From Streptomyces sp. ICBB 8177 (GTDB lineage Bacteria; Actinomycetota; Actinomycetes; Streptomycetales; Streptomycetaceae), in contig NZ_NSKH01000018.1 in NCBI RefSeq assembly GCF_003144095.1, positions 1,118,743 through 1,182,742 on the forward strand: 64,000 nucleotides of DNA, written 5' to 3'. This document shows, one piece after another, positions 15,046 through 41,688 of the stretch (its first letter is position 1; each line of letters starts with the position of its first letter). Position numbers and translations under genes: made by a program. A model generated the notes under the pieces. It made no database searches, was not told the origin of the DNA, and saw only the letters and a program-made list of their open reading frames with translations.

Positions 15046-15142
15046 GGGTCCTCGCTTCGAACAGTGCTGGTCCTGCCGAGCGTCGTCGGTAGGACCAGCG
15101 GGCGAACGGGGCGGGGCGGTCAGTCCGCCTTGCTTCTGGGGG

Positions 15143-17857: not shown

Positions 17858-17947
17858 GCTGGATGCCTCCAACAGGTCTGTTGTGGACTGGTTGGGCCGG
17901 GGCGACCGCGTGTCTTTGGCGAGATCGGGCGGTCGCCCCGGGCCTGC

Positions 17948-18415
17948 CTAGAACGGCGGTTCGGCGCCCTCCGCCGCGCTGGCCCCGCCTGTGGCGGGGG
18001 CGCTGGTTGCGGCCCACGGGTCGGCGCTGGCCTGGCCCTTCTGGGCGGGGTGCTTGCCGTTGATGATCACGGTGGTGAAGCGGACGGACGCGCCGATGTC
18101 GTCGACCTCGACGGCGAGCATGGAGCGCTTCTCGCCGGTGTCGGTCGTCCAGTCGTGCTGCCGCATCCGGCCCGTGGCGACGACGCGAGAGCCCTTGCCG
18201 AGGCTGTCGGCGACGTGCTCGGCGAGGGCGCGCCAGGCGGAGCAGCGGTAGAAGGCGGTGGTGCCGTCCTTCCACTGGTTGCTGGTGCGGTCGAAGCTGC
18301 GGGGGGTGACGGCGATCGTGAACTTCGCGAGCGCGGCGCCGCCGTCGGTGAACTTCAGCTCAGGGTCGTCGGTCAGGTTGCCGACGAGGGTGATCGGGGT
18401 CTCTCCGAACGACAT
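17948..18415 (-). CDS. ssb: Single-stranded DNA-binding protein
   Basis: 155 residues. The OB-fold signature is complete: ITLVGNLTDDPELKFTDGGA, then FTIAVTPRSFDRTSNQWKDG, FYRCSAWRALAEHVADSLGK and SRVVATGRMRQHDWTTDTGE. A short Gly/Ala/Ser linker ends in an acidic tip, EGAEPPF, similar to the DDIPF tail that recruits partner proteins. It protects single-stranded DNA during AICE replication. It lies 90 bases upstream of prim-pol on the same strand. Confidence 0.93.
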   Translation of the reverse strand: MSFGETPITLVGNLTDDPELKFTDGGAALAKFTIAVTPRSFDRTSNQWKDGTTAFYRCSAWRALAEHVADSLGKGSRVVATGRMRQHDWTTDTGEKRSMLAVEVDDIGASVRFTTVIINGKHPAQKGQASADPWAATSAPATGGASAAEGAEPPF

Positions 18416-18882: not shown

Positions 18883-19386
18883 CTAGCGAGACAGGGCGTT
18901 GCGGTTGCGGGCGATCAGCCCGTATGCCGGAGCGGTGATGGTGTTCAACTCCTGCCGGACCGGTCCGGCGTAGTGGTGGTGGGTCTCGGCGTGCGTGGCC
19001 TTCAGCGAGCGCAGCGCGGAGCCGATGGCGGCGGCGACCGCGGCTACGGCGGCCATCGGGAGGGTGACGAACAGGACGCTGGTCAGGGTCACGGCGGCGA
19101 ACCCCTGGCACGCGAGCCAGATTCCGCAGCCGAGGCCGACGCACGTGACGCCGACGCCGATTCCGGCAACCGCGGTCCCGGCGGCCCACGCGGGGACGAT
19201 CCGGTGGTCCGGCTGCGGGACCGGCGGCGTGGGGCCGTAGGACGGCAGCGGGGTGGTGTCGCGGTAGGCGGTCGGCATCTGTGGCACGGGCCGGTAGACG
19301 TCTTCGATGATCCGCCGGGCTTCGGCGGCGGCTTCCATGTCGGTCATGCGCGGCTGCCAGGCGCCGGGCGGGTCGTGGTCGGGCAT
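18883..19386 (-). CDS. AICE membrane protein with two transmembrane helices
   Basis: 167 residues. A soluble, Pro-rich N-terminus (RRIIEDVYRPVPQMPTAYRD) precedes two hydrophobic helices, about residues 66-92 (AWAAGTAVAGIGVGVTCVGL) and 96-122. A tail with HAETHHHYAGPVRQELN follows. No family is recognised with certainty; similar proteins lie beside traB in AICEs and may help mycelial spread. An in-frame ATG 39 bases downstream is an alternative start. Confidence 0.65.
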   Translation of the reverse strand: MPDHDPPGAWQPRMTDMEAAAEARRIIEDVYRPVPQMPTAYRDTTPLPSYGPTPPVPQPDHRIVPAWAAGTAVAGIGVGVTCVGLGCGIWLACQGFAAVTLTSVLFVTLPMAAVAAVAAAIGSALRSLKATHAETHHHYAGPVRQELNTITAPAYGLIARNRNALSR

Positions 19387-27355: not shown

Positions 27356-28126
27356 GTGGCCAACGAACGTCTCCGCGCGGCGATCGTCGAGCGCGGGCTG
27401 ACACTGGAGCAGGTTGCCGAGCGGTTAGGCGTCGCACCGAAGACGGTTGAGCGCTGGATCAGTGACCCGGCAAGGAAGCCATACCGGCGCTTCCAGTACG
27501 CGACGGCGTCCCTGCTTCAGCAAGAGGTCTCGTACCTCTGGCCGGACGAGCGCACCGCAGCCGAGGTGACAGCGGCCGGCAACGCCGAGCTCATCCGCAT
27601 CTACCCCCACCGGTCGACGGTCCCCAACGCCCTTTGGCCGACGCTCTATGCCGGTGCCCGCGAGTACTTCGATGTCGTTGCCTACTCCGCGTTTTGGCTC
27701 ACCGAGGACACGGCCTTCCTCCGCATTGTGCGCGAGAAGTCCGCTGCGGGAGTCCGAGTACGGTTCATGCTTGGAGACCCCGACAGCCTGGCCGTCGCCC
27801 AACGCGGAGACGATGAAGGCATCGGCGCCGCCATGGCCGCAAAGATCCGCAACGCGCTTCTGAACTACGCCGGAATCTTCGACCTCCCAGGGGTCGAGTT
27901 CAGGCTCCACGGCACCACGCTGTACAACTCCCTCTACCGTTCCGACGATGCCATGCTCGTCAACGGCCACATTTACGGTGTCGGAGCGTACCTCGCACCG
28001 GTTATGCACCTTCAACGTGTCCCGGGCGGCGAACTCTTCGACACCTACGCCGAGAGCGTCGAGCGCGTTTGGGAAGGAGCCCGCTCGATCTCCTCACCCA
28101 CTGACCTCACCGGAGCGACCGCATGA
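27356..28126 (+). CDS. XRE-type HTH regulator with DUF5919-like domain
   Basis: 256 residues from GTG at 27356 with GGGAGG just upstream. An N-terminal helix-turn-helix reads LRAAIVERGLTLEQVAERLG VAPKTVERWI (split here). The larger C-terminal domain (FDVVAYSAFWLTEDTAFLRI VREK, split; VRVRFMLGDPDS; FDLPGVEFRLHGTTLYNSLY) has the look of a phospholipase-D-like or DUF5919 sensor module. Such genes often stand upstream of Nudix genes in Streptomyces elements. It overlaps the Nudix start by four bases, so both are expressed together. It probably senses a signal and controls excision or transfer. Confidence 0.82.
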   Translation: MANERLRAAIVERGLTLEQVAERLGVAPKTVERWISDPARKPYRRFQYATASLLQQEVSYLWPDERTAAEVTAAGNAELIRIYPHRSTVPNALWPTLYAGAREYFDVVAYSAFWLTEDTAFLRIVREKSAAGVRVRFMLGDPDSLAVAQRGDDEGIGAAMAAKIRNALLNYAGIFDLPGVEFRLHGTTLYNSLYRSDDAMLVNGHIYGVGAYLAPVMHLQRVPGGELFDTYAESVERVWEGARSISSPTDLTGATA

Positions 28127-28596
28127 GCCGCATCGATTACTACCGCGACCCCGCCGCTCCGTCGGCTAACTCCGTTGTGCCTTCGGTCACGGCAGTCGTA
28201 CGAGACGCAGAGGGGCGGCTTCTCCTCATTCACAAGACTGACAACGACCTTTGGGCTCTCCCTGGAGGTGGACACGATCTCGGGGAGTCCGTAGCCGACA
28301 CCGTCGTACGTGAGGTACGGGAGGAGACCGGCGTCGAGGTGGTCGTCGACGACATCGTCGGCCTCTACACCGACCCGCACCATGTCATGGCCTACGACGA
28401 CGGCGAGGTTCGTCAACAGTTCTCTATCTGCTTCCACGCCCATCCGGTAGGTGGCGAGCTGCGCACCAGCGACGAGTCGAAGGAGGTTCGTTGGGTCGTC
28501 CCAGCAGACCTCGACAACCTCGACATTCATCCTTCGATGCGGTTGCGAATCGCCCACGGGCTCGATGCCGCTCGAGCAGCTCCTTACATCGGCTGA
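28123..28596 (+). CDS. Nudix hydrolase (possible Pif-like transfer immunity protein)
   Basis: 157 residues. The Nudix box is complete: GGGHDLGESVADTVVREVRE followed by ETGVEV, with the metal-binding Glu residues of RE..REE. Nudix proteins cleave nucleoside diphosphates linked to another group. In pSAM2 the Nudix protein Pif blocks redundant transfer between cells already carrying the element, so the AICE context suggests an analogous role; homology to Pif itself was not tested. It is coupled to the HTH gene by ATGA and its last 13 bases overlap the convergent HD gene. Confidence 0.85.
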   Translation: MSRIDYYRDPAAPSANSVVPSVTAVVRDAEGRLLLIHKTDNDLWALPGGGHDLGESVADTVVREVREETGVEVVVDDIVGLYTDPHHVMAYDDGEVRQQFSICFHAHPVGGELRTSDESKEVRWVVPADLDNLDIHPSMRLRIAHGLDAARAAPYIG

Positions 28597-29144
28597 CCGG
28601 CCGCCTTCAGTCGCTCATCCACCCTGCATGCAGCGGCATGGATCTCTGGCGCCGCCCGCTGGATGAACCTGCCCACGATCGTGTCCGGCCCGTATCTGTC
28701 AACGATTTCGCCCACGCGGGCTGCTGTGGTGGTGCGAGCGCCGTCCGGCGTCGTAGTCATGTCGCAGAAGATGAGTGCGTCTACAAGTTCTGGCCGCTCC
28801 AGCTCGAACTCTGACTCCAATTCGCGACGTAGCCCGCGCTCCTCCGCCTCGAGCAGTGCGCAGGAGTGATGGGCGACCAGCCGCACTACGCGGTCGTCTG
28901 CGTTCTCCTGGTCTCGCAAGAATCGAGCCCCGTCGAGCGGGTGAAATCCTGTGAAGGCAATATGTGGCGAATAGCCAACATCGTGCAGTATCGCTGCGGC
29001 TTCCATCAGCTCCGCGTCGGGGCCGAGAATCGGCCTTAGCTCCCGGGCCCGGCATGCGACCCCCTGAACGTGCGCCCACCGCCGCGGCAGCGGCTCAGCA
29101 AGCATTCGTTCAGAGATGTCGTAGGCCCAGTCAGTGAGGTTCAT
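28584..29144 (-). CDS. HD-domain phosphohydrolase
   Basis: 186 residues. HD motifs are visible: WAHVQGVACRARELRPILGP (first His), then EAAAILHDVGYSPHIAFTGF (His-Asp) and DDRVVRLVAHHSCALLEAEE (later His pair). An Asp in LVDALIFCDMTTTPDG completes the metal site. HD proteins hydrolyse phosphoesters, often of nucleotides. It lies between the Nudix gene (convergent, 13-base overlap) and the GntR gene (14-base overlap), so it is part of the element's regulatory block. The substrate is unknown. Confidence 0.85.
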   Translation of the reverse strand: MNLTDWAYDISERMLAEPLPRRWAHVQGVACRARELRPILGPDAELMEAAAILHDVGYSPHIAFTGFHPLDGARFLRDQENADDRVVRLVAHHSCALLEAEERGLRRELESEFELERPELVDALIFCDMTTTPDGARTTTAARVGEIVDRYGPDTIVGRFIQRAAPEIHAAACRVDERLKAAGQPM

Positions 29145-29592
29145 CTACTCCAGCTTCCGAGGTTGCGATGGTGTTCGGGACGCGGAGCACTGTCCGTCCC
29201 TTGCCCGGCAGGGACAGCAGCACACCGTCTGCCTCGAGGACGGCGAGAGCACGGCGGATGGTAGGGCGCGACTTCTGAAACCGATCGCACAGGGTCGACT
29301 CGGATGGAAAGGCGTCGCCGACAGCCAGATGTTCGTCGTGGATCAGAACTGTCATCAGCTCAGAAAGCGACGGGGATGCCTCACCGCCCATCACCCGCCA
29401 GCCCACCCCTGGCTCTGGGCGGAGGAATCCATCTGCTTCCAAGACCTTCAGAGCACGCCGAGCAGTGGTTCGGGATACCTGGCGCTCCCGGACGATGTCC
29501 GACTCACGAACAAGTCCACCCTTGCCTGGGGCAGTCGCACGGACGACTTCCGCAACTCTGCGGAAGGTGCCCCGGGGATTGGCCTCAGCCAC
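29131..29592 (-). CDS. GntR-family regulator with two winged helices (KorSA-like)
   Basis: 153 residues that consist of two GntR-type winged helices and no effector domain. The first spans residues 8-68 (LVRESDIVRERQVSRTTARR ALKVLEADGF, split here), the second 75-140 (DAFPSESTLCDRFQKSRPTI RRALAVLEADGVL, split). AICE repressors of the KorSA type are also GntR proteins that silence the excision/transfer activator. The tandem DNA-binding build is unusual for GntR proteins, which normally carry a ligand domain. It overlaps the HD gene by 14 bases. CRISPR array 1 begins 94 bases beyond its 5' end. Confidence 0.82.
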   Translation of the reverse strand: MAEANPRGTFRRVAEVVRATAPGKGGLVRESDIVRERQVSRTTARRALKVLEADGFLRPEPGVGWRVMGGEASPSLSELMTVLIHDEHLAVGDAFPSESTLCDRFQKSRPTIRRALAVLEADGVLLSLPGKGRTVLRVPNTIATSEAGVDEPH

Positions 29593-29685: not shown

Positions 29686-30629
29686 GGGACCATCCCCGCG
29701 GGCGCGGGGAGCACAGCACCGACGGCGCCCTGTTGGAGCGCATCGCGGGACCATCCCCGCGGGCGCGGGGAGCACCTCTGAGCACCGGCCCTGCTGGGGT
29801 TCTTTGAGGGACCATCCCCGCGGGCGCGGGGAGCACTTGCTGCGGCTCGCCGCGCTCCCCGAGGACGAGGGACCATCCCCGCGGGCGCGGGGAGCACACC
29901 TCTCGCACCGTCTTCTCGCCCCAGTACGGGGGACCATCCCCGCGGGCGCGGGGAGCACACCGCGAGCGACGGCCAGGCGGTCCGCGACGCGGGACCATCC
30001 CCGCGGGCGCGGGGAGCACATTTGCAGAACAAGATGGAAGACGTTGAAGACGGGACCATCCCCGCGGGCGCGGGGAGCACCCGCCGGTAGTCGGTGAAGC
30101 AGTACCAGCCGTGGGACCATCCCCGCGGGCGCGGGGAGCACGTAGGCCTGCTTCATCAGCACGGGGTCCGCAAGGGACCATCCCCGCGGGCGCGGGGAGC
30201 ACTCGCCGACCCGATCGACAGATCGGGATGGGGCGGGACCATCCCCGCGGGCGCGGGGAGCACAGGAGTCTCGTTCGGTCGGCAGGCAGAGGGATGGGAC
30301 CATCCCCGCGGGCGCGGGGAGCACGCCAAGGCCCGGTTCGCACAGGGCGTGTTGACGGGACCATCCCCGCGGGCGCGGGGAGCACACCTTCGCCGAGAAG
30401 GCGGAACTGGAGGCCTGGGGACCATCCCCGCGGGCGCGGGGAGCACAACCCGCCGAAGGGCGAGTGCCCGCAGTGCTGGGGACCATCCCCGCGGGCGCGG
30501 GGAGCACCAGTCGCGCGTCTGGACGCCCCCGGCCTGCGGGGGACCATCCCCGCGGGCGCGGGGAGCACCCGGCTATGTCACCATCCCCGTCGCTAACGGC
30601 GGGACCATCCCCGCGGGCGCGGGGAGCAC
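29686..30629 (-). CRISPR. CRISPR array 1, type I-E, 16 repeats / 15 spacers
   Basis: Sixteen 29-base repeats lie exactly 61 bases apart (29686, 29747, up to 30601), leaving 32-base spacers. In the crRNA sense (minus strand) the repeat starts GTGCTCCCCGCG, has the palindromic CCCCGCG/CGCGGGG core and ends ATGGTCCC, which would be the 5' handle, as in type I-E. All copies look identical. The leader is on the right, between the array and cas2, so the newest spacer is the one near 30600. The array is co-directional with the cas operon. Confidence 0.97.
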
Positions 30630-30710
30630 TCTCCTTGACCTGGGACTTCACTGGCCTACGGCGTCGAGACGGACCACTTTCGCAGATTCCGACATAAGCA
30701 TCCTTTTGGT
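30630..30710 (-). promoter_or_regulatory. Leader of CRISPR array 1
   Basis: 81 bases between the first repeat and the cas2 stop. In crRNA sense, CCAGGTCAAGGAGA (30643-30630) abuts the repeat and GCGAAAGT lies at 30683-30676. Both motifs recur at the leader of array 2. A site adjacent to the repeat is where IHF-like factors or Cas1-Cas2 direct integration in other I-E systems. Confidence 0.7.
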
Positions 30711-31073
30711 TCAGGTTTGGCCGAAGCGTCGGCGCTTAGCCGCCTTGCTCCAGCCGGGACGTGGTTTGGTCTCGGTCGTTGGCCTCGTTGCGGATGCGTC
30801 TCCACCGGGGCGCCGGATGAGGGTGAGACCTTCGTGGTCGATCGGGTGCCAGGAGTGCTCGTGGGTCCGGAAGGTGAATCCCTGCTCGTTGTCGGCGGTG
30901 TGAGCGAGCAATGCGCGGCCTTGGCCGGACAGCTGGCACACCTCGTTCCAGAGAGTGTCCCGAATGCGGGCGGATGGGTTGCCGATGAAGACGCCCGGCG
31001 AGATTTCGAGTAGCCAGCGTGTAAGGAAGCCCCGTAGTCCTGGGGGACAGTTGGTTAGGACGATGACAGTCAC
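30711..31073 (-). CDS. cas2: CRISPR adaptation protein Cas2 (type I-E)
   Basis: 120 residues, the normal size for Cas2e. MTVIVLTNCPPGLRGFLTRW LLEISPGVFIGNPSARIRDT (two parts joined) is the ferredoxin-like fold start typical of the E. coli-type CasE-linked Cas2. FRTHEHSWHPIDHEGLTLIR forms the C-terminal strands, followed by a basic tail. With Cas1 it forms the integrase complex that inserts new spacers next to the leader. Its start overlaps the cas1 stop (ATGA). Confidence 0.95.
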   Translation of the reverse strand: MTVIVLTNCPPGLRGFLTRWLLEISPGVFIGNPSARIRDTLWNEVCQLSGQGRALLAHTADNEQGFTFRTHEHSWHPIDHEGLTLIRRPGGDASATRPTTETKPRPGWSKAAKRRRFGQT

Positions 31074-32020
31074 CAGCTGTAGTCCGTCGCGTGGTTGAGA
31101 CCTGCGGCAACGTGGTGGCCGTGGTCGGACTGCAGAGTGACCTCGTCGTAGGCGTCATCTTCTGCGGTCGTAAAGTCGGCGGGAAGGAGGAGTTCGTGGA
31201 TGTCGTTGACGATGCGGTCCAGGAGCCGAACTTCGTTAATGCGGTCGCGTAGAGCTCGGCGAGTGCGTGCTCCGACGTCTTCCGGCGAAATGGCCGCTGC
31301 ATCGAAGGCGGCCGGAATGGCGATGTCGGTTTTGTAGAGGTCGGCGATGTCCAGGACGAAAGACAGCTCGTGCCCGGAGTGTACGAACCCGAGGGCGGGC
31401 GAGCAGCCGAGGGCTGCCACGACGGCGTGTGCGACGCCGTACATGGCTTGGGCAGCGGCTGTGATGGCTTGGTTGGCGGGGTCGCTCGCGGCGAAGTCTC
31501 CTGGCGTATATCTCCGGCCTTGCCAAGGGACACCGGTGCGTTGGGCCTGCGCGCGATAGCACTCTTTGACGCGGTGGCCTTCGCGGCCGAGGAGTTCCTT
31601 GCGGGTGTAACCGGAGGGGTCCTCATTGGGAAAGCGAAGTCTGTACATCGCCCGGGCCACTTCCAACCGGGCACGACGGTTGGCCCAGCAGGTTGCTTGT
31701 GCTTGGGCTAGGGAGGCAGAGCGAGACAGCGCCCGGCCGGCCGCGTAGTAGCGAACGCCTTGCTCGCCAACCCATACGACGCCGGCGCCGGTCTCACCCA
31801 GGACGCTCATGGCCTGGTGGGTGATGCGGGTACCTGGTCCGAGCAGCAGTGTGCCGATGGTGGCTGAGGGGATGTGGGTGACGCCCTCGGCGTCCTGCAC
31901 GGTGATGGCGTTTGCGTCCCGGTGAATCGTGCAACGTTCGAAGTAGACGAAGGAGATCCGGTTGGCGGTGCGTGTCAGTTCACGGGGGCTGGCCGTGGCT
32001 CTTTGGCTGACAGTTGTCAA
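31070..32020 (-). CDS. cas1: CRISPR adaptation integrase Cas1 (type I-E)
   Basis: 316 residues. The metal-binding residues expected from E. coli Cas1 are in place: E147 in LGREGHRVK, H214 in GFVHSGHELSF and D227 in LDIADLYK. The N-terminal beta domain (RISFVYFERCTIHRDANAIT) and helical C-terminal domain are complete. It catalyses spacer integration with Cas2. Four-base overlaps with cas6 upstream and cas2 downstream keep the adaptation genes in the same transcript as interference genes. The intact active site suggests adaptation is possible. Confidence 0.96.
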   Translation of the reverse strand: MTTVSQRATASPRELTRTANRISFVYFERCTIHRDANAITVQDAEGVTHIPSATIGTLLLGPGTRITHQAMSVLGETGAGVVWVGEQGVRYYAAGRALSRSASLAQAQATCWANRRARLEVARAMYRLRFPNEDPSGYTRKELLGREGHRVKECYRAQAQRTGVPWQGRRYTPGDFAASDPANQAITAAAQAMYGVAHAVVAALGCSPALGFVHSGHELSFVLDIADLYKTDIAIPAAFDAAAISPEDVGARTRRALRDRINEVRLLDRIVNDIHELLLPADFTTAEDDAYDEVTLQSDHGHHVAAGLNHATDYSW

Positions 32021-32736
32021 CGGGTTTCCTTCGCTGGGGCAAGGGTCATCAGACCGCAGCCGTAGGCCTTGGCCTTGCCCAGACCGCTGGTCAATACGCG
32101 TCGCAGTGCTTCGGGTTCGGTGATCTCCAGTCGTCCGTCATAGGTGACGGTGGTGAGGGTGACGCGGCGGCCGCGTGTGCCGTGTTTGCCGAAGTGGAGG
32201 CTTCGGTGGTCGCGGACGACGAGTTGGTGTTCGTCTCCGTGTTCGGTGTGGCGTGTGTGCTCCGGCTTGGCCAGGATCCGTATGCCGATGGTGTCCTGTC
32301 GTTCCAGGAGCCACCGCATCTGGTGGTGGGCGGTGATGTGTGCGGTGCGCTTGGTGGGCTGGCCGTCGCGGGTGCGGGCGTGATGCACGGGATTGGCGGT
32401 CAACCGGAAGTTGAAGACGTTGCCTTTCTCCAGTTTTCCCAGGAATGGGGCGTAAGTGAAGGTCTGCCAGCCTGGGGTGCCGACGGCGGCTGCGGCGGGC
32501 CAGCCGGCTTGTTCGACCAAATGGGTGAGGTCCGGGCGCTCGGGGCTCACCAAATACAGCAGCACTTCCGCGCGGGAGTTGTGGTCGACGCGCCACAGGA
32601 TGCGTGGCTGTTCGCTGGAGGTCGGCAGGACGTTGGGAAAGGAGGACATGACCGCGGCGTGCATGACCTGGGGGGACGAGAGCAGGCGGCGGGCGTCTGC
32701 GCGGGCTGTGTTGAAACGGAAGCGGGTCAGGTACAT
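32017..32736 (-). CDS. cas6e: crRNA-processing endoribonuclease Cas6e
   Basis: 239 residues; ATG at 32736 follows GGAAGG and overlaps the cas5 stop by one base. MYLTRFRFNTARADARRLLS SPQVMHAAVMSSFP (split here) carries the catalytic His near residue 26, as in Thermus Cas6e. The closing glycine-rich loop GLGKAKAYGCGLMTLAP is the family's RNA-binding signature. It cuts the repeat at the base of the hairpin to release crRNAs with an eight-base 5' handle. Confidence 0.95.
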   Translation of the reverse strand: MYLTRFRFNTARADARRLLSSPQVMHAAVMSSFPNVLPTSSEQPRILWRVDHNSRAEVLLYLVSPERPDLTHLVEQAGWPAAAAVGTPGWQTFTYAPFLGKLEKGNVFNFRLTANPVHHARTRDGQPTKRTAHITAHHQMRWLLERQDTIGIRILAKPEHTRHTEHGDEHQLVVRDHRSLHFGKHGTRGRRVTLTTVTYDGRLEITEPEALRRVLTSGLGKAKAYGCGLMTLAPAKETR

Positions 32737-33473
32737 CAGACGCCTTCCAGGTGTCCTGTCGGGTCGTGGGCCGGGGTGGTCGGGCGCGGTCGGGCGTGCG
32801 GGTTGCTGACGGTGACGGTGCTGGAATGGATGGTGCGCAGCGCGTAGCGGCGGTGCCCGGGGGCGAAGCTGAGGGGGTGGTCGCGAAGCGTGTCCCCGAG
32901 TGGCTCTGGCTCCCCGTCGGCGGACCGTGCCTCGATCAGGGTGGTGAGTTTGACGTGTTCTTGGAGACGAAGCCGCCGTTGGTACCAGTCGGCGGCCCGC
33001 CACGGTTCCCCGGCGAGTACATGTTGCAGTCCGATGTCGCCGTGCTGGACACTCGGGTTGATCGGGCGTGCTGGGGGGCAGGAGCGCCTTCCCAGGTACG
33101 GGAGGTATGCGGGGGCGCGCAGTGCGGCGGCGAGCCGGTCGATCAGTGCGGTCTCGCCTTCGACTGCGGCGACGAACACGGCGTCGGCAAGGTAGAACCG
33201 CTCGGAGAGCGGCATGGCTTCGTCGGTATCGGGGTGGTGCGCGGTCTGGAAGTCGCGGATACGGGTGCCAGGCTGGTCGACGCGGACACCGAAGCGCAGC
33301 GCGGCCAGCGCTTCGAGGTGCTCGTCGGCGTTGCGATCCAGGCCGAGCGCTGCGGCGAGCAGTCCGATGACGCCGCTTTTGGTCGGCGCGCCTTCCGTGG
33401 TACGGCGGGCGAAGCGGGCCGAGGCCCCCCACGATTGCAGGGGGCCGGCCAGCGTCAGCGTCAAGACGCTCAT
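32736..33473 (-). CDS. cas5e: Cascade subunit Cas5e
   Basis: About 245 residues from ATG at 33473, overlapping the cas7 stop (ATGA); a longer frame to 33662 is a shadow. MSVLTLTLAGPLQSWGASAR is the classic Cas5 start, followed by RRTTEGAPTKSGVIGLLAAA LGLDR (split). It holds the crRNA 5' handle in the Cascade complex. SFAPGHRRYALRTI near the end is typical of the I-E form. Confidence 0.95.
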   Translation of the reverse strand: MSVLTLTLAGPLQSWGASARFARRTTEGAPTKSGVIGLLAAALGLDRNADEHLEALAALRFGVRVDQPGTRIRDFQTAHHPDTDEAMPLSERFYLADAVFVAAVEGETALIDRLAAALRAPAYLPYLGRRSCPPARPINPSVQHGDIGLQHVLAGEPWRAADWYQRRLRLQEHVKLTTLIEARSADGEPEPLGDTLRDHPLSFAPGHRRYALRTIHSSTVTVSNPHARPRPTTPAHDPTGHLEGV

Positions 33474-34663
33474 GCGCGGTGCTCCAGGCGCTCCGCGATG
33501 GCCTGGCCGACGGCGGAGACCAAGGCGGACAGACTGGGTGTCTCGATGCCGAGCGAGGTGAGCTTGGCGGTAGCCGGACCGACGCGCAGCACCCAGGTCA
33601 TGGCGTCGTCTTCGCCGTAGGCGCGTTCGAGTTCTGGGACGTAGTCGGCCAGTCGGGCGCAAGCGGGTTCCATGTGTCCGCCGAATTCGTCGGCGACGAC
33701 GGGCCGTTCGAAGGCGGAGACGAAACTGACAGGGCGGGCAGTGCGCAGTTTGACGACGACCGCGTCCGGCAAGGTGTGGTTCCCGAAGGTGTTGATCTTG
33801 CCGGTGGGCAAGGAGGAGACGAACCCGTCCAGGAACACCTCGACGGCCCGGCGCACGGGGGTGGCCGGTTCGTCCTCATCCAGGCCCTTGCCGAGGTTAC
33901 GGGTCAGCAAGTCGATGTCGAGGGCCGCGTAGCGGTAGAGCGTGGCGGAGTTGAAGTCGACGGTTCCGATCATGCCGGCGCCCGGCTCGGCGTCGGTGTT
34001 GCGGTCATCGACGGCGGTGAAGTAGTCCGACTCGATTTCCGCGCGGTGAACGCTGAGCGCGTGGGCGACTTGCGCGGCGGCGTCGACGTTGATGTCTGCG
34101 GAGTCGGCGACCATCCGGCCGAACAGCGCGATGTCCACTGAGTGCCGTCCGTCCGCGATCTTCTTGGCTCGGGACTTGGTGTCCTTGCTCTTGAAGAACG
34201 CCTTGATGTCGTCGGCGCCTTCCACGGCCAGGTCGGCCAGCAGGTCCAGCTGGCGGGCGCTGAGGAACATCAGGTACGACGACTCGGGCGCCGGCTGCGG
34301 CTCACCGTTCTTCTTCGCAGCTTCCGCTTTGCGCTTGGGCGGCTCGATCTTCGAGCCGGTGGCGGTCTGCAACACCTCAGCAGCCAGGGCGAGAGCCTGT
34401 GGCCCGTCCAGTTCGGGCTGCGCCGCGGAGATGCGTGCGGCGAGGACTTCGGCGACGCGCTTGGTGCGCACACCGAGCTCAGCTGGGTCGAGGAGCTGGG
34501 TGAAGTAGCGTCGGGTAGCGCGCTTCCAGGCCTGGCTGGAGACTCGAGCCCGGGTCACCCCACCGTAGATGGCGGTCTTGGGGGAGCCGGTGTCATCGCG
34601 GTTGAGATTGCTGGGTGGCACGTTCTGCAGTGCGTGCACGTCGAGGATGAGGCGAGAGTTCAC
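33470..34663 (-). CDS. cas7e: Cascade backbone subunit Cas7e
   Basis: 397 residues. LILDVHALQNVPPSNLNRDD TGSPKTAIYGGVTRARVSSQ AWKRATRRYF (parts joined) is the recognisable Cas7e N-terminus. GMIGTVDFNSATLYRYAALD and GKINTFGNHTLPDAVVVKLR are further family marks. Six copies are expected to coat the crRNA. The inserted stretch with KRKAEAAKKNGEPQPAPESS is a basic loop often variable in the family. It overlaps cas5 and casB by four bases each. Confidence 0.95.
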   Translation of the reverse strand: MNSRLILDVHALQNVPPSNLNRDDTGSPKTAIYGGVTRARVSSQAWKRATRRYFTQLLDPAELGVRTKRVAEVLAARISAAQPELDGPQALALAAEVLQTATGSKIEPPKRKAEAAKKNGEPQPAPESSYLMFLSARQLDLLADLAVEGADDIKAFFKSKDTKSRAKKIADGRHSVDIALFGRMVADSADINVDAAAQVAHALSVHRAEIESDYFTAVDDRNTDAEPGAGMIGTVDFNSATLYRYAALDIDLLTRNLGKGLDEDEPATPVRRAVEVFLDGFVSSLPTGKINTFGNHTLPDAVVVKLRTARPVSFVSAFERPVVADEFGGHMEPACARLADYVPELERAYGEDDAMTWVLRVGPATAKLTSLGIETPSLSALVSAVGQAIAERLEHRA

Positions 34664-35304
34664 GAAGCGTCCTTCGAGTCGGTGGCGGTCTCGTTGTCCT
34701 GGCCGGTGGTGGGAGCACGGTGGGCGTGGAATGCCCGGCCCCAGGCGCGCCGCACCTGATCCGGGCCGCCGGGCTGCTGCCAGCGGTAGAGGTGTTCGGC
34801 CAGCAGGGCGTAGTCCAGGGCGATGTCCTGGCCGCGCAGCAGCAGGACGAGCTCGCGCAGGCGACTGGAGAGCATGGCCAGGGTGGGTGACATGCCGACG
34901 CGCACGAACCGCTTACGGACCGGCTCATCGATCTCTCCGGGCGGCATCAGTCGGCGCACAGCGGTGCCGAGTTCGATACCAGGGCGATGCATGCCGCTCC
35001 TGCGGGACTGCTGGTGCAGGGACCACAGCGTGGCCGAGGTGTAGATCGCGTCCGCGGCGGCCTGCTGGTGCAAACGCTCATCGGCATACAAGGGCGCGAG
35101 GTCGATCAGCCCCCACAAGTCCGGAACTGCGGAGGCGTCGCGACCCGCTCCGCGCCGCAGCCGGGCCAGTGCCGCGACGCAGTCGGAGCGGTCGGCTAGG
35201 TAGCCACCTTGCAGCCGCGTGATCTCGCCTGAGACCAGGGCCCGAATCGTGTTCTGCTCTTGCTGGGAGTGGTTGGCGGTCGGGGGCTGGCCGACGGTGG
35301 TCAT
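34660..35304 (-). CDS. casB: Cascade small subunit Cse2 (CasB)
   Basis: 214 residues, all-helical. LVSGEITRLQGGYLADRSDC and VAALARLRRGAGRDASAVPD form the typical CasB opening. MPPGEIDEPVRKRFVRVGMS and LVLLLRGQDIALDYALLAEH LYRWQ (split) are conserved near the C-terminus. Two copies normally sit on the crRNA-DNA hybrid in Cascade. ATGA overlaps tie it to casA upstream and cas7 downstream. Confidence 0.94.
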   Translation of the reverse strand: MTTVGQPPTANHSQQEQNTIRALVSGEITRLQGGYLADRSDCVAALARLRRGAGRDASAVPDLWGLIDLAPLYADERLHQQAAADAIYTSATLWSLHQQSRRSGMHRPGIELGTAVRRLMPPGEIDEPVRKRFVRVGMSPTLAMLSSRLRELVLLLRGQDIALDYALLAEHLYRWQQPGGPDQVRRAWGRAFHAHRAPTTGQDNETATDSKDAS

Positions 35305-37043
35305 GCGGATGCCTTCCGGAGGTCCTCATCAGCGGGGTCTGCGCATGGTGGTTCACCCGGGCCGGGACTACCTGTGGACTGCGCCGGCACGCCAGCGGAG
35401 ACCTCACTGGTATCAGCCAGGGGCAGTGCCTTGCGCAGGCGGGCGTTGAACGACAGCTCGGCCGAGGCGGTGTTCAGCCAGACGTCGCCCTTGGGCCGTG
35501 ACACGACCCGGCCCTGCCAGGCCGCCTGACCCGCAGTGGCGACCAGGTCGTCGCGGAGCCGCCCGACGACGCGCCGGGCAGTGTGCTGCCAGACGGCCCT
35601 GGCCGTCTGGGGGTCGGCGGTGTCGTGGAGGTCGGCCAGCCACCGTCGGTACGGCTCATCGAGTGCGCCGAAGCCGCGATCGCGCGCTTCAAGACGGTCC
35701 GCCTCCGATTCGCTGCCCGCTGCCTCAGCCAGGTCATTGGCCAGGTCACCGAGTGCTCGCACCGCCAGATCCGCGTCGGCGACCGCGTCAACCGCTGCTT
35801 GCCCGAGCGCTTGGTTGCCTTCGTGCAGCAGTACCACTGCCAGCGCCACCGCATCATGGGTGAGCTCATCGACCACGGACTGCTGCGTCCCGTACCGGAC
35901 TCCATAGGTCCGCAGCCGCACCAGCGCCCGCCGCGGCAGACACCCCTCCTGTGACAAGCGGGCCAGCCACTCCACCACACCCGGCCTGAGTGATGATGCC
36001 GGGTCACCACCACTTGCGGTACGGCCGTCACGCGGCGCGATCAGCGCCTCCAGGCCCCGCCACGCTGCGCGGGCCGGATCGTGCTCACGCGGCATGTACA
36101 CCAGTGGCTTGCCCAGCTTCTTCTCCTGTGCCTGGCTGCGTCTCCAGGCAGACATCGGCTCGAAATGCTGAGCGTTGTGCGGGGCCAGCGGGTCACCGTA
36201 GGTCAGCACCACACCGTGCACGCCCTCGGCGTCCGCATGCAGCAGCAACCGGCGTGACTGCCAGGTGTACAGATCCCGCAACCCCGCTGGGCGTGCCGCC
36301 AGATCGTCTGAGGCTCCGGGGCCGGTCGGCGGTTGCCGCCACGCCGGCCGGTCATCCACGGGTGCGGGGTGGTGGTCGGCGGCGAGCAGGTTCAGCAGGA
36401 GCGTCTCGCGCAGCGTCGCCCCTTCGGCCAGGACTCCGCCGAGGTTCCCGGCCCAGGCCACTCCTTGCGGATACGCCTTGCCGTTCTTGGCCCGCGGATC
36501 GCCCACCACACCGCTTTTGATTCCGGAGGTGTCGAAGGCCTGCGCGTGCACCACCCACCGCGCGGCCTCAGCGAATCCGATCCGGGCCACTCCGGGAAAC
36601 CGCGTGGTGAAGAAAGGGCTGCCGTTCGGAACATCCGCCACGATCCGGTTGAGCGAGAACACTTCGTGGTTCGCCGTGTGCAACCCCGGTGTCTGGAAGA
36701 ACGGCGTCAGTGGGTGGAGCAGATCGAAGCGCCCCCGGTGCTCGGCGAGGTAATCGGACGCCCGCGCGAAGGCGTTTCCGTCCTCCCACAGTTCAGCCCA
36801 GGCTTCCGTGTCCGCTGGCCCGTCCAATGCGTCATGCGCGATCGCCAGCAGCAGACGCGTCAGCGCGAAGTCCTGGGTCGGCAGATCACCCGCCAACCGC
36901 CTGATCCGTCCAGCCTCCCCGAAGGCCTGACGCAGCGACACCTCCCGCTCGCCGCCGTCGAGGAACTGCACGGGCAGCCATGGCTGGCCGGTCAGGTCGA
37001 ACGACAGCAGGCCATCCGGCCGTACTGTCCGGTCATCAGTCAC
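35301..37043 (-). CDS. casA: Cascade large subunit Cse1 (CasA/Cas8e)
   Basis: 580 residues. LLSFDLTGQPWLPVQFLDGG opens the domain; FDLLHPLTPFFQTPGLHTAN and VVHAQAFDTSGIKSGVVGDP are typical of Cas8e. It recognises the PAM in target DNA and recruits Cas3. The C-terminal four-helix bundle (PYRRWLADLHDTADPQTARA and onward) is present, and the tail after it is Pro/Gly-rich. Its start overlaps the cas3 stop by eight bases. Confidence 0.95.
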   Translation of the reverse strand: MTDDRTVRPDGLLSFDLTGQPWLPVQFLDGGEREVSLRQAFGEAGRIRRLAGDLPTQDFALTRLLLAIAHDALDGPADTEAWAELWEDGNAFARASDYLAEHRGRFDLLHPLTPFFQTPGLHTANHEVFSLNRIVADVPNGSPFFTTRFPGVARIGFAEAARWVVHAQAFDTSGIKSGVVGDPRAKNGKAYPQGVAWAGNLGGVLAEGATLRETLLLNLLAADHHPAPVDDRPAWRQPPTGPGASDDLAARPAGLRDLYTWQSRRLLLHADAEGVHGVVLTYGDPLAPHNAQHFEPMSAWRRSQAQEKKLGKPLVYMPREHDPARAAWRGLEALIAPRDGRTASGGDPASSLRPGVVEWLARLSQEGCLPRRALVRLRTYGVRYGTQQSVVDELTHDAVALAVVLLHEGNQALGQAAVDAVADADLAVRALGDLANDLAEAAGSESEADRLEARDRGFGALDEPYRRWLADLHDTADPQTARAVWQHTARRVVGRLRDDLVATAGQAAWQGRVVSRPKGDVWLNTASAELSFNARLRKALPLADTSEVSAGVPAQSTGSPGPGEPPCADPADEDLRKASA

Positions 37044-39951
37044 TAGACACCTCGAGTCCGTCGTCGGGGCTGTAGCTGAGCCGGAACCCTGCCACAGAGG
37101 TCTGACAACCGGGCCTGAGCGGCAGAATCAGTTCCCCCGCCAGCCAAAGGCTTTCCCGCGCTTGCCAGTTGGGGACGCAGAACTGCTCAAGCTCGGCGAT
37201 CACGCGACCGATCACGTACGGCTTCGCCATGCGGGCCGGGAGCCGTAGCGTGCACGCCGCCGCGGCCTTCGCGGCATCCGACGAAGGCACGGCGCCGGTG
37301 GGCAAGGGGAGCCCTCCGCGCCCGTCGCCGGCCCAGCTCACGGTTGCGAGCGCCCCGTCGTCGAGCTGCTCGACGACGATGACCTCCACGCTTTCCGGGG
37401 CATCGCGCACCTGTGCCCGCCCGGCGCGGGTGTCATCCACGTCCCCCGCGCTACCGGCGAGCCAACCCACCAGCGACCGGCCGGGCCTGGCCGCGATGGC
37501 GATACGGAAGGTGTCGGCTGCCTTGGCCTTGGCCGCCTTGAGCGCATCGTCTTCGCGGCGGGCCTCGTCCATCGCCTGCGCCCACGCCGCAGGGCCGACG
37601 GGCTCGTCCGCGTAGGCCTGCTGCACCAGCGAGCTGATGTCCTGCGGCAAGCGAACCGTTCGGTACCCACCCCCAGACGGAAGGTCCAGCACCGCGACCG
37701 AACGCAGCAGCGCATGCCGCCCGTAGACGGCCAGGGAACCGCGAACCGGCTCTGGCGGCACGCCTTTCCAGTCGGCCACACCGGTGACCAGGCACAGCGG
37801 CTCACACAAACCCTCAGGGCGGACACCGCGCTGATGGCGGTGGAGCCGGCCCATGCGCTGCAGCAACAAGTCCACCGGGGCCAGGTCGGTGACCAGCAGG
37901 TCGAAGTCGACATCCAGCGACTGCTCGGCGACCTGGCTCGCCACCACCACGTGCCGGGCCGGGCGGTGCCCGTCGCTCGTCTCCGGCGGCCCGAAGCACT
38001 CGAGCAGCTTGTTGTCCTTGGTGGCCCGGTCGACGTCGATGAATCGGGCGTGCGCCACGGTCACCTCGCTCGCATCGAAGCGCTCGCGCAGCGCCTTGGC
38101 GGCCTCCAGCACTCGATCCACGGTGTTGCGCACCACCAGGGCACAACCCCCGTGGGCCAGCTCGGCCTCCAGGCGGTCGGCCAGGACCCGCAGGTCGTCC
38201 GACAGCGCCTTCACCCGTACCTGACTGCCGCGGCCTGACGCCTTTGGCCGCTCCACCCGAGGCAACTGCCCAGGGGCAGCAGCGATCAGCAGCGGATAGC
38301 CGTCCGCCTCCTCCAAGGCGACGAAATCCTCTTCTTGGCCGCCAACTCCCGAATACGCCCTAGCCAGGTCCCGCCGCCGCCCGGCCGGCAACGTCGCCGA
38401 CAGCACCACCACCGGCACGCGATACTCGCCCAACCAGCCCAACACCCGGTCCAAGTAGGAGTTCATGTAGGTGTCATAGGCATGCGCCTCGTCGATCACG
38501 ACGACTTTGCTTGCCGCCGCAAGGTGCCGCAGCGCCAGGTGACGGGTCTTAAGGCCCGCGAACAACAACTGGTCGACCGTGCCGACCACGAAGGACGCCA
38601 GCATGCCCTTCTTCCGGCCGCTCAACCACTGGTGCGCCACCAACTCGGCCGCCACAGCCACATTTTCCCGGCCAGGCCGCAGCGACTCCTGCACGCCATC
38701 CGTGTCCACCGCGGCGATGCGCTGCCACGAAGCCGCCTTCACCTCGGCAAAATCCTTGTTCAGCGCCGCCTTCGAATGCGCCAGCAGCACCGACAGCCGT
38801 TCCCCCTCTCGCGTCGGCAGTCGCTCCAGCCACGCAAGCAGCCGCGGGAACATCGCATTACTCGTCGCCATCGTCGGCAACGCGAAGAACACCCCGCCCG
38901 CACCACTACGCGCTGCCAGCACCTCAGCCGCGGCCAACGCGGCCTCCGTCTTACCCTCACCCATCGGTGCTTCGATGATCAGCAGCCCCGGCTCCGGCAT
39001 CTCCCGCGCCACCCGCACCGCCGCTTCCTGCACCGGCCGCAACTGCGCACCGGGCGGAAGAGCGAAGCGAGCCGCGAACAGCTCCGCAACACTGCCCTGC
39101 GGCAACCGCGGTCGCCACGGCTCCGGCAGCCCCAGCCCCACCCAAGCCGCTCCCACCCGGTCCCCGCCCGGCGGCGACTGCCCAAGCCCCGCGTAGGGAA
39201 AGAGATCGGGATTGCTCGCCACCCAGTCCGCGACGATGACCAGCGCCGACAACAGCACCTGCACCGTCTGCGGCAACTTCACCCGCTGCCACGCCTCCAG
39301 CCGTTCACGGACACCGAACTCACCCGCGCACGCCTCCAGCAACTCCTCCTGAACCCGCCGCCACAACTGCTGACTCGGACCGGGAGTGCGCAGTAGCGCC
39401 GGACGTGCGTCCGCATCATCGAGCTGCGCGTAGTCGGGCGGCACGCCATGATGCCCCCCAACCACCACCGCGAACTGGCTTGTCGCCCGCCGCGGCCAGC
39501 CGCACCGCTCCTCCAGCCATTCCTCCAGCAACAACTGTCCAGCCAGCCCATGCGGAGCCAACCGCCGGTCCTGCCCCATCTCCCGCCGGTAAGGCATCTC
39601 CAACCCGACGGCACGCATCCCGTCTGCCAGCCCATCCACCTGACAAGCGAACGCCGGCGTCGCCTTCCCGATGTCGTGAACCCCCGCCAGCCAGACCGCC
39701 AGCGACCGCGCATCCGCCTCACCGCCCGGCAGCACCTCCACCAACCGCCGCCGCACTTGCTCAGGCAACCACCGGTCCCACAACAGCCCAGCCACCGCAC
39801 CGCTGTCAGCCATATGCCGCCACAACGGCAACCAGCAGTCCGTAGCGGCATCATGCTTGGCCCAGGCAGACCGGGCTTCTTGGGACAGTCCCGCGCCGAG
39901 GAACTGCGGCGAACTCCCTCTAGATTCCTCCACGAAAGCAACAAACCGCAT
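37036..39951 (-). CDS. cas3: CRISPR interference nuclease-helicase Cas3
   Basis: 971 residues with an HD nuclease domain fused to a helicase. HD motif LAGVHDIGKATPAF has His-Asp at 92-93. Further HD-site residues are likely in GGHHG (167-168) and IVADWV (near 243). Helicase Walker A is EAPMGEGKTEAAL (328-335 core), the DEAH box VVIDEAHAYD is at 487-490, and motif VI lies in DLLLQRMGRLHRHQ. It degrades DNA marked by Cascade. It is the first gene of the cas operon; the start has no clear ribosome site, so weak or leaderless initiation is possible. All catalytic motifs are intact. Confidence 0.96.
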   Translation of the reverse strand: MRFVAFVEESRGSSPQFLGAGLSQEARSAWAKHDAATDCWLPLWRHMADSGAVAGLLWDRWLPEQVRRRLVEVLPGGEADARSLAVWLAGVHDIGKATPAFACQVDGLADGMRAVGLEMPYRREMGQDRRLAPHGLAGQLLLEEWLEERCGWPRRATSQFAVVVGGHHGVPPDYAQLDDADARPALLRTPGPSQQLWRRVQEELLEACAGEFGVRERLEAWQRVKLPQTVQVLLSALVIVADWVASNPDLFPYAGLGQSPPGGDRVGAAWVGLGLPEPWRPRLPQGSVAELFAARFALPPGAQLRPVQEAAVRVAREMPEPGLLIIEAPMGEGKTEAALAAAEVLAARSGAGGVFFALPTMATSNAMFPRLLAWLERLPTREGERLSVLLAHSKAALNKDFAEVKAASWQRIAAVDTDGVQESLRPGRENVAVAAELVAHQWLSGRKKGMLASFVVGTVDQLLFAGLKTRHLALRHLAAASKVVVIDEAHAYDTYMNSYLDRVLGWLGEYRVPVVVLSATLPAGRRRDLARAYSGVGGQEEDFVALEEADGYPLLIAAAPGQLPRVERPKASGRGSQVRVKALSDDLRVLADRLEAELAHGGCALVVRNTVDRVLEAAKALRERFDASEVTVAHARFIDVDRATKDNKLLECFGPPETSDGHRPARHVVVASQVAEQSLDVDFDLLVTDLAPVDLLLQRMGRLHRHQRGVRPEGLCEPLCLVTGVADWKGVPPEPVRGSLAVYGRHALLRSVAVLDLPSGGGYRTVRLPQDISSLVQQAYADEPVGPAAWAQAMDEARREDDALKAAKAKAADTFRIAIAARPGRSLVGWLAGSAGDVDDTRAGRAQVRDAPESVEVIVVEQLDDGALATVSWAGDGRGGLPLPTGAVPSSDAAKAAAACTLRLPARMAKPYVIGRVIAELEQFCVPNWQARESLWLAGELILPLRPGCQTSVAGFRLSYSPDDGLEVSSD

Positions 39952-39955
39952 TCAC

Positions 39956-39982
39956 AATTCGTTGTCAGCGACTTGACGAATT
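39956..39982. promoter_or_regulatory. Dyad immediately upstream of cas3
   Basis: AATTCGT at 39956 and ACGAATT at 39976 form seven-base inverted arms with a 13-base centre that itself contains GTCA and TGAC. It lies four bases before the cas3 start codon, in an AT-rich patch. It is a candidate operator for control of the cas operon. Confidence 0.5.
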
Positions 39983-40119
39983 TGACACCTTGCCCTGGCC
40001 GTCCTCGAGGACGCCCGAGCTTGCCGCTTGCCGTGTGGCGTGGGGTGCCCCCGGCCCTGTCGTGAGCCACAAGCCGCCCGTGGTAGAGCTTCCGGGGTGC
40101 CGCCCCGGCAGACGGGATG

Positions 40120-40208
40120 CCGTCTTGTGACCAATGTCCACAATGTGTATTTCGGTGGAAGTACTTGAAATTAGCGAAAGTAGCGGCTGAAATGCCAGGT
40201 CAAAGAGT
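40120..40208 (+). promoter_or_regulatory. Leader of CRISPR array 2
   Basis: An AT-richer stretch just before the first repeat. CCAGGTCAAAGAGT (40195-40208) abuts the repeat and GCGAAAGT is at 40174. Both are shared with the leader of array 1, although the gap between the motifs is 13 bases here against 32 there. The rest of 39983-40119 shows no gene. Confidence 0.7.
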
Positions 40209-41457
40209 CTGCTCCCCGCGCCCGCGGGGATGGTCCCCTGTCCTCTGTACGCAACGCGGTTGCTACCGCCTGCTCCCCGCGCCCGCGGGGATGGTCCCGC
40301 AGCTAAGGCCAAGGGGACCCGGTACGAGGGCTGCTCCCCGCGCCCGCGGGGATGGTCCCGCCGTCACCCCCCTAGACAGGCCGCCGTCGGCCTGCTCCCC
40401 GCGCCCGCGGGGATGGTCCGACCGGATGCGGCAGGTCGTCATCTACTGGCCGCTGCTCCCCGCGCCCGCGGGGATGGTCCCACGTGGCATGCATTGGTCC
40501 GAACGGATCGGGACTGCTCCCCGCGCCCGCGGGGATGGTCCCGTGCCGGAGTCTGCGATGACGCAGTTCAACGACTGCTCCCCGCGCCCGCGGGGATGGT
40601 CCCCCTTGTTCGCTGGCATCACCCCCACCAAGTTCCTGCTCCCCGCGCCCGCGGGGATGGTCCCGACCCAGGGCTCTCCCGCGTGCGAGGCAGCCGCTGC
40701 TCCCCGCGCCCGCGGGGATGGTCCCGACCGCACATCGTCGACGACGCGCTTGAGGCCCTGCTCCCCGCGCCCGCGGGGATGGTCCCTAAGGCCAGTCTGA
40801 TTGCTGGCCAGTGGGACACTGCTCCCCGCGCCCGCGGGGATGGTCCCGGGACCCATCCTCAACCGTCAATCACGAATACCTGCTCCCCGCGCCCGCGGGG
40901 ATGGTCCCGTGCGGAAGATCTGCGGGGAGCTGGGGCAGCTCTGCTCCCCGCGCCCGCGGGGATGGTCCCACCCACTCCGAGTCGTGCGACGCCAGCAGCC
41001 GCTGCTCCCCGCGCCCGCGGGGATGGTCCCTACATGTCGGGCCTACAGGACCCACCCGCATCCTGCTCCCCGCGCCCGCGGGGATGGTCCCAGGTTCGTG
41101 AAAGCGTTGATCACGGCCGGGGTCTGCTCCCCGCGCCCGCGGGGATGGTCCCAAGAAGGGCTGGCCGCATCACCGCATGGCCGGCTGCTCCCCGCGCCCG
41201 CGGGGATGGTCCCCAACCGCGGCTAACGGCGTTCAGCGCGAGGAGCTGCTCCCCGCCCCCGCGGGGGTGGTCCCCTGGGTGGGTCGGCGCTCACCAGCCA
41301 GTACCACTGCTCCCCGCGCCCGGGGGGATGGTCCGGACTTGGCGTGCGCGCCGCGCAGCCTCCCGACCTGCTCCCCGCGCCCGCGGGGATGGTCCCGTCC
41401 TCGACTACGGCTACTCGGTCACCGGCAGCTGCTCCCCGCGTCCGCGGGGATGGTCCC
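40209..41457 (+). CRISPR. CRISPR array 2, type I-E, 21 repeats / 20 spacers
   Basis: Twenty-one 29-base repeats at strict 61-base spacing (40209 to 41429) with 32-base spacers. The consensus starts CTGCTCCCCGCG and ends ATGGTCCC; it differs from array 1 only in its first base. Variants: last base G at 40392; two changes at 41246; two or more at 41307; one (C to T) at 41429. Mutations gather at the right end, as expected for the leader-distal, oldest end. The array is read rightward, away from the divergent cas operon, and ends 187 bases from attR. Confidence 0.97.
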
Positions 41458-41644: not shown

Positions 41645-41688
41645 CTTACAAAGCAGATGTCACAGGTTCGAATCCTGTTGTGCCCACC
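41645..41688 (+). repeat. attR: 44-bp direct repeat
   Basis: Identical over 44 bases to attL. Only the 3' half of the tRNA is present, without acceptor 5' strand, D arm or anticodon 5' stem, so it is not a working tRNA gene. The base after it is G, which means the uninterrupted chromosomal tRNA would read ACCG rather than ACCA. Confidence 0.95.

What the first reader, a model, noticed from the sequence alone, without database searches (positions are those of the whole stretch)
29686..41457. A full type I-E CRISPR-Cas system carried as terminal cargo of an AICE
The eight cas genes and both arrays lie inside the att repeats, filling the attR end of the element, with the last repeat only 187 bases from attR. 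Cas1, Cas3 and Cas6e active residues are intact. A conjugative element moving double-stranded DNA by TraB while carrying DNA-targeting immunity could spread immunity, exclude rival elements, and must avoid cutting itself. I know of no standard AICE with this cargo. This is the most notable system in the window.
Basis: partly seen in the sequence, partly recalled or inferred. Interest (0 to 1): 0.92.

Follow-up and report, generated by a model that had tools for sequence, protein, structure and literature searches.

The report
CRISPR immunity carried inside an AICE
A self-transmissible DNA element of a Streptomyces-family bacterium appears to carry a complete, intact-looking CRISPR immune system at one end, in a place where related elements carry other genes, some of them defence genes; CRISPR on mobile DNA is known, but this type of carrier for it seems new.

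Summary
Confirmed. A 28.05-kb element lies between two identical 44-bp att repeats (13596-13639, in the 3' part of tRNA-Val, and 41645-41688), the only exact copies found in the genome. It has the AICE modules: tyrosine integrase, excisionase, RepAM (DUF3631) with Prim-Pol, SSB, FtsK/SpoIIIE-type TraB, and an xre-nudix-HD-GntR block. Seven related AICE regions (three in the same tRNA-Val) lack cas; the attR-side slot of the two that I annotated holds NaeI restriction-modification or an NB-ARC/WD40 gene. Among 42 family genomes with both this integrase and Cas7e, only this one shows them within 50 kb; four could not be judged. So it is cargo in a variable AICE slot, new by carrier only. Accretion at tRNA-Val is common, so capture from a neighbouring island with loss of a middle att stays possible. 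Transfer and immunity are untested; no protospacer was found.

The parts
13596..13639 (+). attL: 3' part of tRNA-Val(TAC), 44-bp direct repeat
13706..14854 (-). tyrosine integrase, next to attL
   Evidence: PF00589 E=1.3e-27; 87% identical to the integrase of a CRISPR-free AICE in tRNA-Val of G034
14854..15249 (-). excisionase-like HTH protein
   Evidence: PF12728; TIGR01764 26.6 bits against a cut-off of 28.8
15268..16647 (-). RepAM-type replication protein (DUF3631)
   Evidence: PF12307 E=5.7e-62
16934..17872 (-). Prim-Pol DNA primase/polymerase
   Evidence: PF09250 E=1.1e-44
17948..18415 (-). single-strand binding protein
   Evidence: PF00436 E=1.3e-25
18883..19386 (-). small membrane protein, possible Spd-type spread protein
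   Evidence: phrog_19266; hydrophobic segments; the Spd role is inferred
19804..21969 (-). TraB-type FtsK/SpoIIIE DNA translocase
   Evidence: phrog_31069 E=1.2e-93; PF01580 below cut-off; near-full-length relatives of 69-81% identity
27083..28126 (+). XRE-type HTH regulator of the xre-nudix-HD block
   Evidence: PF01381; same block order in G043 and G079
28123..28596 (+). Nudix hydrolase, Pif-like by domain only
   Evidence: PF00293 E=6.5e-20
28584..29144 (-). HD-domain phosphohydrolase
   Evidence: PF01966 E=1.8e-11
29131..29592 (-). GntR-type regulator with two winged-helix units, KorSA-like by domain only
   Evidence: PF00392 E=2.6e-20, two stretches
29686..30629 (-). CRISPR array A: 16 identical 29-nt repeats, 15 spacers
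30630..30710 (-). presumed leader of array A, between cas2 and the array
   Evidence: 74-78% over about 100 nt, one repeat included, in related loci G110 and G139
30711..31073 (-). cas2e
   Evidence: TIGR01873, PF09707
31070..32020 (-). cas1e
   Evidence: TIGR03638 E=1.6e-104
32017..32736 (-). cas6e
   Evidence: PF08798, TIGR01907
32736..33473 (-). cas5e (start approximate; the open frame runs to 33662 over cas7e)
   Evidence: TIGR01868 from residue 66 of the frame
33470..34663 (-). cas7e
   Evidence: PF09344 E=8e-124
34660..35304 (-). cse2
   Evidence: TIGR02548
35301..37043 (-). cse1
   Evidence: PF09481 E=3e-112
37036..39951 (-). cas3 (HD nuclease and helicase)
   Evidence: PF18019 E=9.8e-57; alignment to 4q2c
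40209..41457 (+). CRISPR array B: 21 repeats, 20 spacers; leader presumed on the cas3 side; worn repeats near the attR end
41645..41688 (+). attR: second 44-bp repeat, without the 5' half of the tRNA

Best explanation
[quoted passage not shown] Shown: att pair, module order, open genes, a sister chromosome without element or cas at that site, related AICEs without cas, and other cargo (NaeI restriction-modification; NB-ARC/WD40) in the same slot of two relatives. Inferred: Int and the excisionase recombine attL with attR, so that the cas genes leave with the element; TraB moves the double-stranded circle to a new mycelium; there the Cas proteins and 35 spacers give portable DNA-targeting immunity against phages, plasmids or rival elements.
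For: Exact 44-bp att with two copies in the genome. AICE modules by domain, matching the definition in PMC3218068 (passages). One Cas1 and one Cas7e match in the genome, both here. Site without the element in G016, tRNA identical over 75 nt, stretch after attR partly aligned. Cas hits in 0 of 7 fetched relative AICE regions (of 8 near-full-length TraB relatives of at least 69% identity; a ninth, G106, is a broken fragment); att pairs in 6 of 7; lengths 15.1-26.1 kb; the window element without its CRISPR block is about 16 kb. G043 has the order xre-nudix-HD-gntR and then attR. Slot cargo in G096 (NaeI and C5 methylase beside attR; DndB; MrcB_N) and G034 (NB-ARC/WD40, ARMT1, lactococcin 972). 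GC is 73.2 and 72.1% in the chromosome, 70.5% in the AICE backbone, 68.2% in the cas operon.
Against: Excision, transfer and immunity were not observed. TraB misses the PF01580 cut-off and the excisionase narrowly misses TIGR01764. No reliable protospacer was found. Only one other held species of the genus could be compared, and its DNA between tRNA and the next shared gene is about 1.4 kb longer than the window's, so its site is not a perfect ancestral copy. The cas part differs in composition and in nearest relatives from the backbone, so it joined separately. No second AICE enclosing a full system was found.
Confidence: 0.8

Rival explanations
1. Accretion composite: a CRISPR-bearing island or element already stood beside this tRNA, the AICE integrated next to it, and the middle att was later lost, so that the two now share one att pair without a history of joint transfer.
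For: Tandem accretion is common here: 3 of 3 related tRNA-Val sites have a third att, and paired integrases recur, as in G276, G435, G034 and G361. In S. zinciresistens K42 an AICE with its own 84-bp attR lies about 1.2 kb from a CRISPR locus outside it.
Against: No middle att trace above shuffled sequence between GntR and array A, no third exact copy in the genome; the sister site has neither part.
Confidence: 0.25
2. Silent passenger: the cas genes ride in the element but are not expressed, or no longer acquire spacers.
For: No protospacer found. Plasmid pSHK1's I-E system showed no activity, although the review notes that those tests ignored the PAM (PMC12231136, passages).
Against: All eight frames open, motif residues kept, array A repeats identical; an S. 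avermitilis I-E system is active (same review passages).
Confidence: 0.2
3. The cas locus is chromosomal and the att repeat is a coincidence.
For: Related I-E loci are usually not in AICEs.
Against: A 44-bp exact repeat of a tRNA 3' part is not expected by chance; the sister chromosome lacks the locus.
Confidence: 0.02

Closest known systems
CRISPR-free AICEs of the same family (G043, G185, G034 in tRNA-Val; G096, G034a, G187 in other tRNAs)
   Same: TraB 69-81% identical; RepAM, excisionase, integrase or regulatory block shared in several; att in tRNA 3' ends
   Different: No cas hits; other cargo in the slot of the two that I annotated
Type I-E CRISPR-Cas of Streptomyces plasmids such as pSHK1
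   Same: Same subtype; Cas7e hits in 160 of 72,556 plasmid records, 102 of them Streptomyces; one plasmid (NZ_CP107922.1) has Cas7e and an FtsK-type TraB relative (34.5% identity) about 22 kb apart
   Different: Plasmid carriers, not site-specifically integrated AICEs
Frankia ICE Fcci3350 (PMC3218068, passages)
   Same: Actinobacterial integrative conjugative element with cas components
   Different: T4SS type; several components only; called likely not functional by its authors
I-C CRISPR on Pseudomonas aeruginosa ICEs/IMEs (PMC9841420, passages) and CRISPR in SCCmec (PMC10434264, search listing)
   Same: CRISPR as cargo of an integrated mobile element
   Different: Other hosts and transfer or excision machineries; I-C in the first
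G051 integrative element, 38.7 kb in tRNA-Arg
   Same: Int, DUF3631 and I-E genes within 43-bp att repeats
   Different: MobC and relaxase, no TraB match; no cas1, cas2 or array found

Membership tests
AICE (actinomycete integrative and conjugative element) | Integrase with att sites, usually in a tRNA 3' end | tested here: met
AICE (actinomycete integrative and conjugative element) | Replication module RepSA, RepAM or Prim-Pol | tested here: met
   DUF3631 and Prim-Pol
AICE (actinomycete integrative and conjugative element) | FtsK/SpoIIIE-type Tra protein | tested here: met
   phrog_31069 E=1.2e-93, but PF01580, the model used by Ghinet 2011, gives only 13.6 bits against 24
AICE (actinomycete integrative and conjugative element) | Excises, replicates and transfers | not testable with these tools
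   needs PCR and mating
Type I-E CRISPR-Cas | cas3, cse1, cse2, cas7e, cas5e, cas6e, cas1e, cas2e side by side on one strand | tested here: met
Type I-E CRISPR-Cas | 29-nt repeats, 32-nt spacers | tested here: met
Type I-E CRISPR-Cas | Catalytic residues of Cas1, Cas3, Cas6e | tested here: met
   aligned with solved homologues; active residues named from recall
Type I-E CRISPR-Cas | Spacers match foreign DNA | tested here: inconclusive
   both arrays against phages, 4 of 35 spacer starts against viral contigs, 35 spacers against 201 fetched loci; no convincing match
Type I-E CRISPR-Cas | Interference and adaptation in the cell | not testable with these tools
   needs plasmid challenge

The most novel reading that the evidence does not exclude
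The attR-side slot of this AICE family is a defence slot, into which AICEs load exchangeable immune modules (restriction-modification, NB-ARC/WD40 proteins, and here CRISPR-Cas), so that a TraB-driven element gives its host adaptive immunity and uses it to keep out rival elements and phages, beside a Nudix-based exclusion of its own.
Probability: 0.3. Interest if true: 0.72.

Novelty: new variant of a known kind. Interest (0 to 1): 0.55.

Why it matters
If it works, adaptive immunity in Streptomyces relatives can be gained and lost as one site-specific unit, moved as double-stranded DNA. It gives a case in which the conflict between a conjugative element and the DNA-targeting immunity that it carries can be tested directly, and a natural route by which the patchy I-E systems of actinomycetes could spread.

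Tried and rejected
Chance att: rejected; 44 bp exact, two copies in the genome. Middle att remnant: none above shuffled sequence between GntR and array A (29592-29690: score 16, reached by 42 of 100 shuffles). Second AICE with CRISPR: S. zinciresistens K42 looked like one, but its attR closes before the CRISPR begins, so it is adjacent, not inside. G046 has tRNA-Gly repeats round a CRISPR, and no AICE gene was recognised among the frames tested. S. lateritius has an FtsK-like gene and a relaxase near cas, plasmid- or IME-like. G055 has tRNA-Pro, an adjacent integrase and cas, but no second att of 18 bases or more within 68 kb. Integrases or fragments near cas in G090, G096 (its Cas7e contig), S. 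corynorhini (G203, L114) and L090, and a weak hit in L064, were not resolved. G051 is an IME-like carrier without cas1 and cas2. DUF3631 co-location is partial, since not all places are listed. The Microbacterium phage match (one phage under two accessions) spans repeat and spacer and is read as chance.

Limits: the nearest cas relative (G022) is a contig of 14.7 kb, so its setting is unknown. Self-targeting was tested only in this window outside 29601-41500 and in fetched loci, not in the whole genome. Co-location and 71/80 was read by eye from the listed places; in draft genomes two contigs can be neighbours, and four genomes (G011, G294, G317, G322) have one of the two places unlisted.
Full report
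Observation. The window lies in a 6.33-Mb genome of 27 contigs. A 44-bp exact direct repeat lies at 13596-13639, in the 3' part of a tRNA-Val(TAC) gene at 13566-13640, and at 41645-41688. A whole-genome search finds exact copies only at these two places; the third hit is a 77% match on another contig. Between them, next to attL, come integrase, excisionase-like HTH, DUF3631 (RepAM), Prim-Pol and SSB, a small membrane protein and a 721-aa FtsK/SpoIIIE-like protein (phrog_31069, E=1.2e-93; PF01580 only 13.6 bits). Farther on lie an XRE regulator and a Nudix hydrolase, an HD hydrolase and a GntR protein. Then come array A, eight cas genes and array B. Cas1 and Cas7e have one match each in the genome, so this looks like the only I-E system of the host.

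AICE identity. Ghinet et al. 2011 (PMC3218068, passages) screen AICEs by integrase, RepSA, RepAM (DUF3631) or Prim-Pol, and an FtsK/SpoIIIE Tra protein, report RepAM next to Prim-Pol, and describe a cluster of an HD hydrolase, a Nudix hydrolase and an XRE regulator in several AICEs. The window element fits these, with the caveat that TraB is under the Pfam cut-off that such a screen would use. The names Pif-like and KorSA-like rest on domains only.

Empty site. The genus has two held genomes. The other one, G016, has no hit for Cas7e, window-type TraB or window-type integrase; it has one DUF3631 hit on another contig. It has an identical 75-nt tRNA-Val, with flanks at 91-94% DNA identity on the left and 84-95% in the longer pieces on the right; in the 50 kb fetched round it only the chromosomal neighbours of the window match, no element or cas gene. 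The stretch after its tRNA aligns in part with the stretch after attR. Between tRNA and the first shared gene it has about 2.6 kb against 1.2 kb in the window, so later changes occurred on one side or the other.

Related AICEs. In 200 family genomes TraB hits occur in 31 and Cas7e hits in 91; 12 have both, and by eye only the window's genome shows them within 40 kb. Eight near-full-length TraB relatives of at least 69% identity were listed besides the window, and one broken fragment (G106). I fetched 40 kb round seven of the eight; none holds a cas hit. Six have an att pair, with lengths 15.1, 17.5, 18.3, 20.5, 22.0 and 26.1 kb; for the seventh, G079, no tRNA was found in the fetched stretch. 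Three sit in tRNA-Val(TAC). G043 has DUF3631, TraB, XRE, Nudix, HD and GntR in the window's order and then attR about 1.1 kb farther. A wider pair of searches gave Cas7e in 149 of 394 genomes and the window-type integrase in 127 of 394. By eye 42 genomes have both; one, the window's, has them within 50 kb (19.7 kb apart), 37 have them far apart or on different contigs, and in four (G011, G294, G317, G322) one place is not listed. Different contigs of a draft genome can be neighbours, so this is strong but not complete.

The slot. I annotated the attR side of two relatives. In G096 the genes beside attR are a NaeI-type restriction enzyme and a C5 methylase, with DndB and MrcB_N proteins next to them; in G034 there are an NB-ARC/WD40 protein, an ARMT1-type phosphatase and a lactococcin-972-type gene. 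So the attR side of this AICE family takes different cargo, some of it probably defensive. Two elements are few. Restriction-modification and abortive-infection genes among AICE cargo are already reported by Choufa et al. 2022 (PMC9513070, passages).

Cas side. Of 42 Cas7e places of at least 60% identity I fetched the surroundings of 38 (some cut by contig ends), plus three named genomes, and screened 80 named loci with up to 10-kb flanks. No Prim-Pol or DUF3631 relative was found near cas in these. An FtsK-like TraB relative was found at one (S. lateritius). Integrases or fragments were found near cas in G202, G090, G055, G203 (also L114), G096 and L090, and weakly in L064. Of these, G202 (S. 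zinciresistens K42) is an AICE-like element (integrase, DUF3987, FtsK-like protein) that ends before the CRISPR begins; the others were not resolved. G051, found separately, is an IME-like element with interference genes only. So I-E genes on or beside integrated elements recur, but an AICE enclosing a full system was seen only here.

Origin. Accretion at tRNA-Val is common: G185, G034 and G043 each have a third att copy, and Choufa et al. describe accretion and cis-mobilisation of composites in Streptomyces. The cas block is lower in GC than the backbone (68.2 against 70.5%; chromosome 73.2 and 72.1%). Its nearest relative (Cas7e 90% in G022) is in another genus than the nearest integrase (87%, G034) and TraB (81%, G096). 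So the block was captured separately; whether by insertion into the slot or by loss of a middle att in a tandem is open. No middle att trace was found.

Function. All frames are open and motif residues are conserved. Array A is perfect; array B has its worn repeats mostly at the end away from its presumed leader, as expected of older repeats. No spacer match of more than 18 bases was found in the window outside 29601-41500. No protospacer was found: arrays against 50,697 phage records, four of 35 spacer starts against viral contigs, and all 35 against 201 fetched loci, where the best partial matches were 22 of 24 and 23 of 26 bases. A 2025 review (PMC12231136, passages) says that 99.5% of 2104 Streptomyces spacers had no phage or plasmid match, so this silence says little. 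A role in excluding rivals is inference.

Literature. In the passages that I saw, Ghinet 2011 mentions CRISPR for a T4SS ICE, Fcci3350, and the plasmid pSHK1. Choufa 2022 counts 445 cargo genes among 541 AICE genes, and its main text has no occurrence of the word CRISPR. The survey of actinobacterial defence (PMC10482375, one section and passages) restricts its analysis to plasmids and prophages. The 2025 review has no occurrence of AICE or integrative. Searches listed no paper whose title or shown abstract start reports an AICE with CRISPR; three of these lists were capped (25 of 45, 12 of 27, 10 of 63). Most subscription papers and all bioRxiv preprints are outside that library.

Verdict. 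It is a new carrier for a known system: a new variant of a known kind.

Noticed in passing
G000:C20:385762-386346: A second window-type integrase copy, broken by a TAG stop, lies about 0.4 kb from a 77% match to the tRNA-Val query (C20:386790): probably the remnant of an older element at a second site.
   Followed up: no
L209-L211 (G051:C1, joined coordinates 15494-54238): A 38.7-kb element in tRNA-Arg with 43-bp att repeats, MobC, relaxase and DUF3631 carries I-E interference genes with no cas1, cas2 or array found.
   Followed up: partly
L177, L178 (G046:C50, joined coordinates 85-27873): tRNA-Gly and a 62-bp repeat of its 3' part enclose a CRISPR island with three arrays (about 54, 37 and 19 repeats by motif count); no AICE gene was recognised.
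   Followed up: partly
L169, L170 (G202:C461): S. zinciresistens K42: a 16.1-kb AICE-like element with an 84-bp att repeat stands directly beside, not round, a type I-E CRISPR locus.
   Followed up: yes
L015 (G096:C24), 2298-8085: A related AICE in tRNA-Tyr carries NaeI restriction-modification, DndB and MrcB_N genes next to attR.
   Followed up: partly
window 41725-42764: About 1 kb after attR has no DNA counterpart in the sister genome, which has about 2.5 kb of other DNA there.
   Followed up: no
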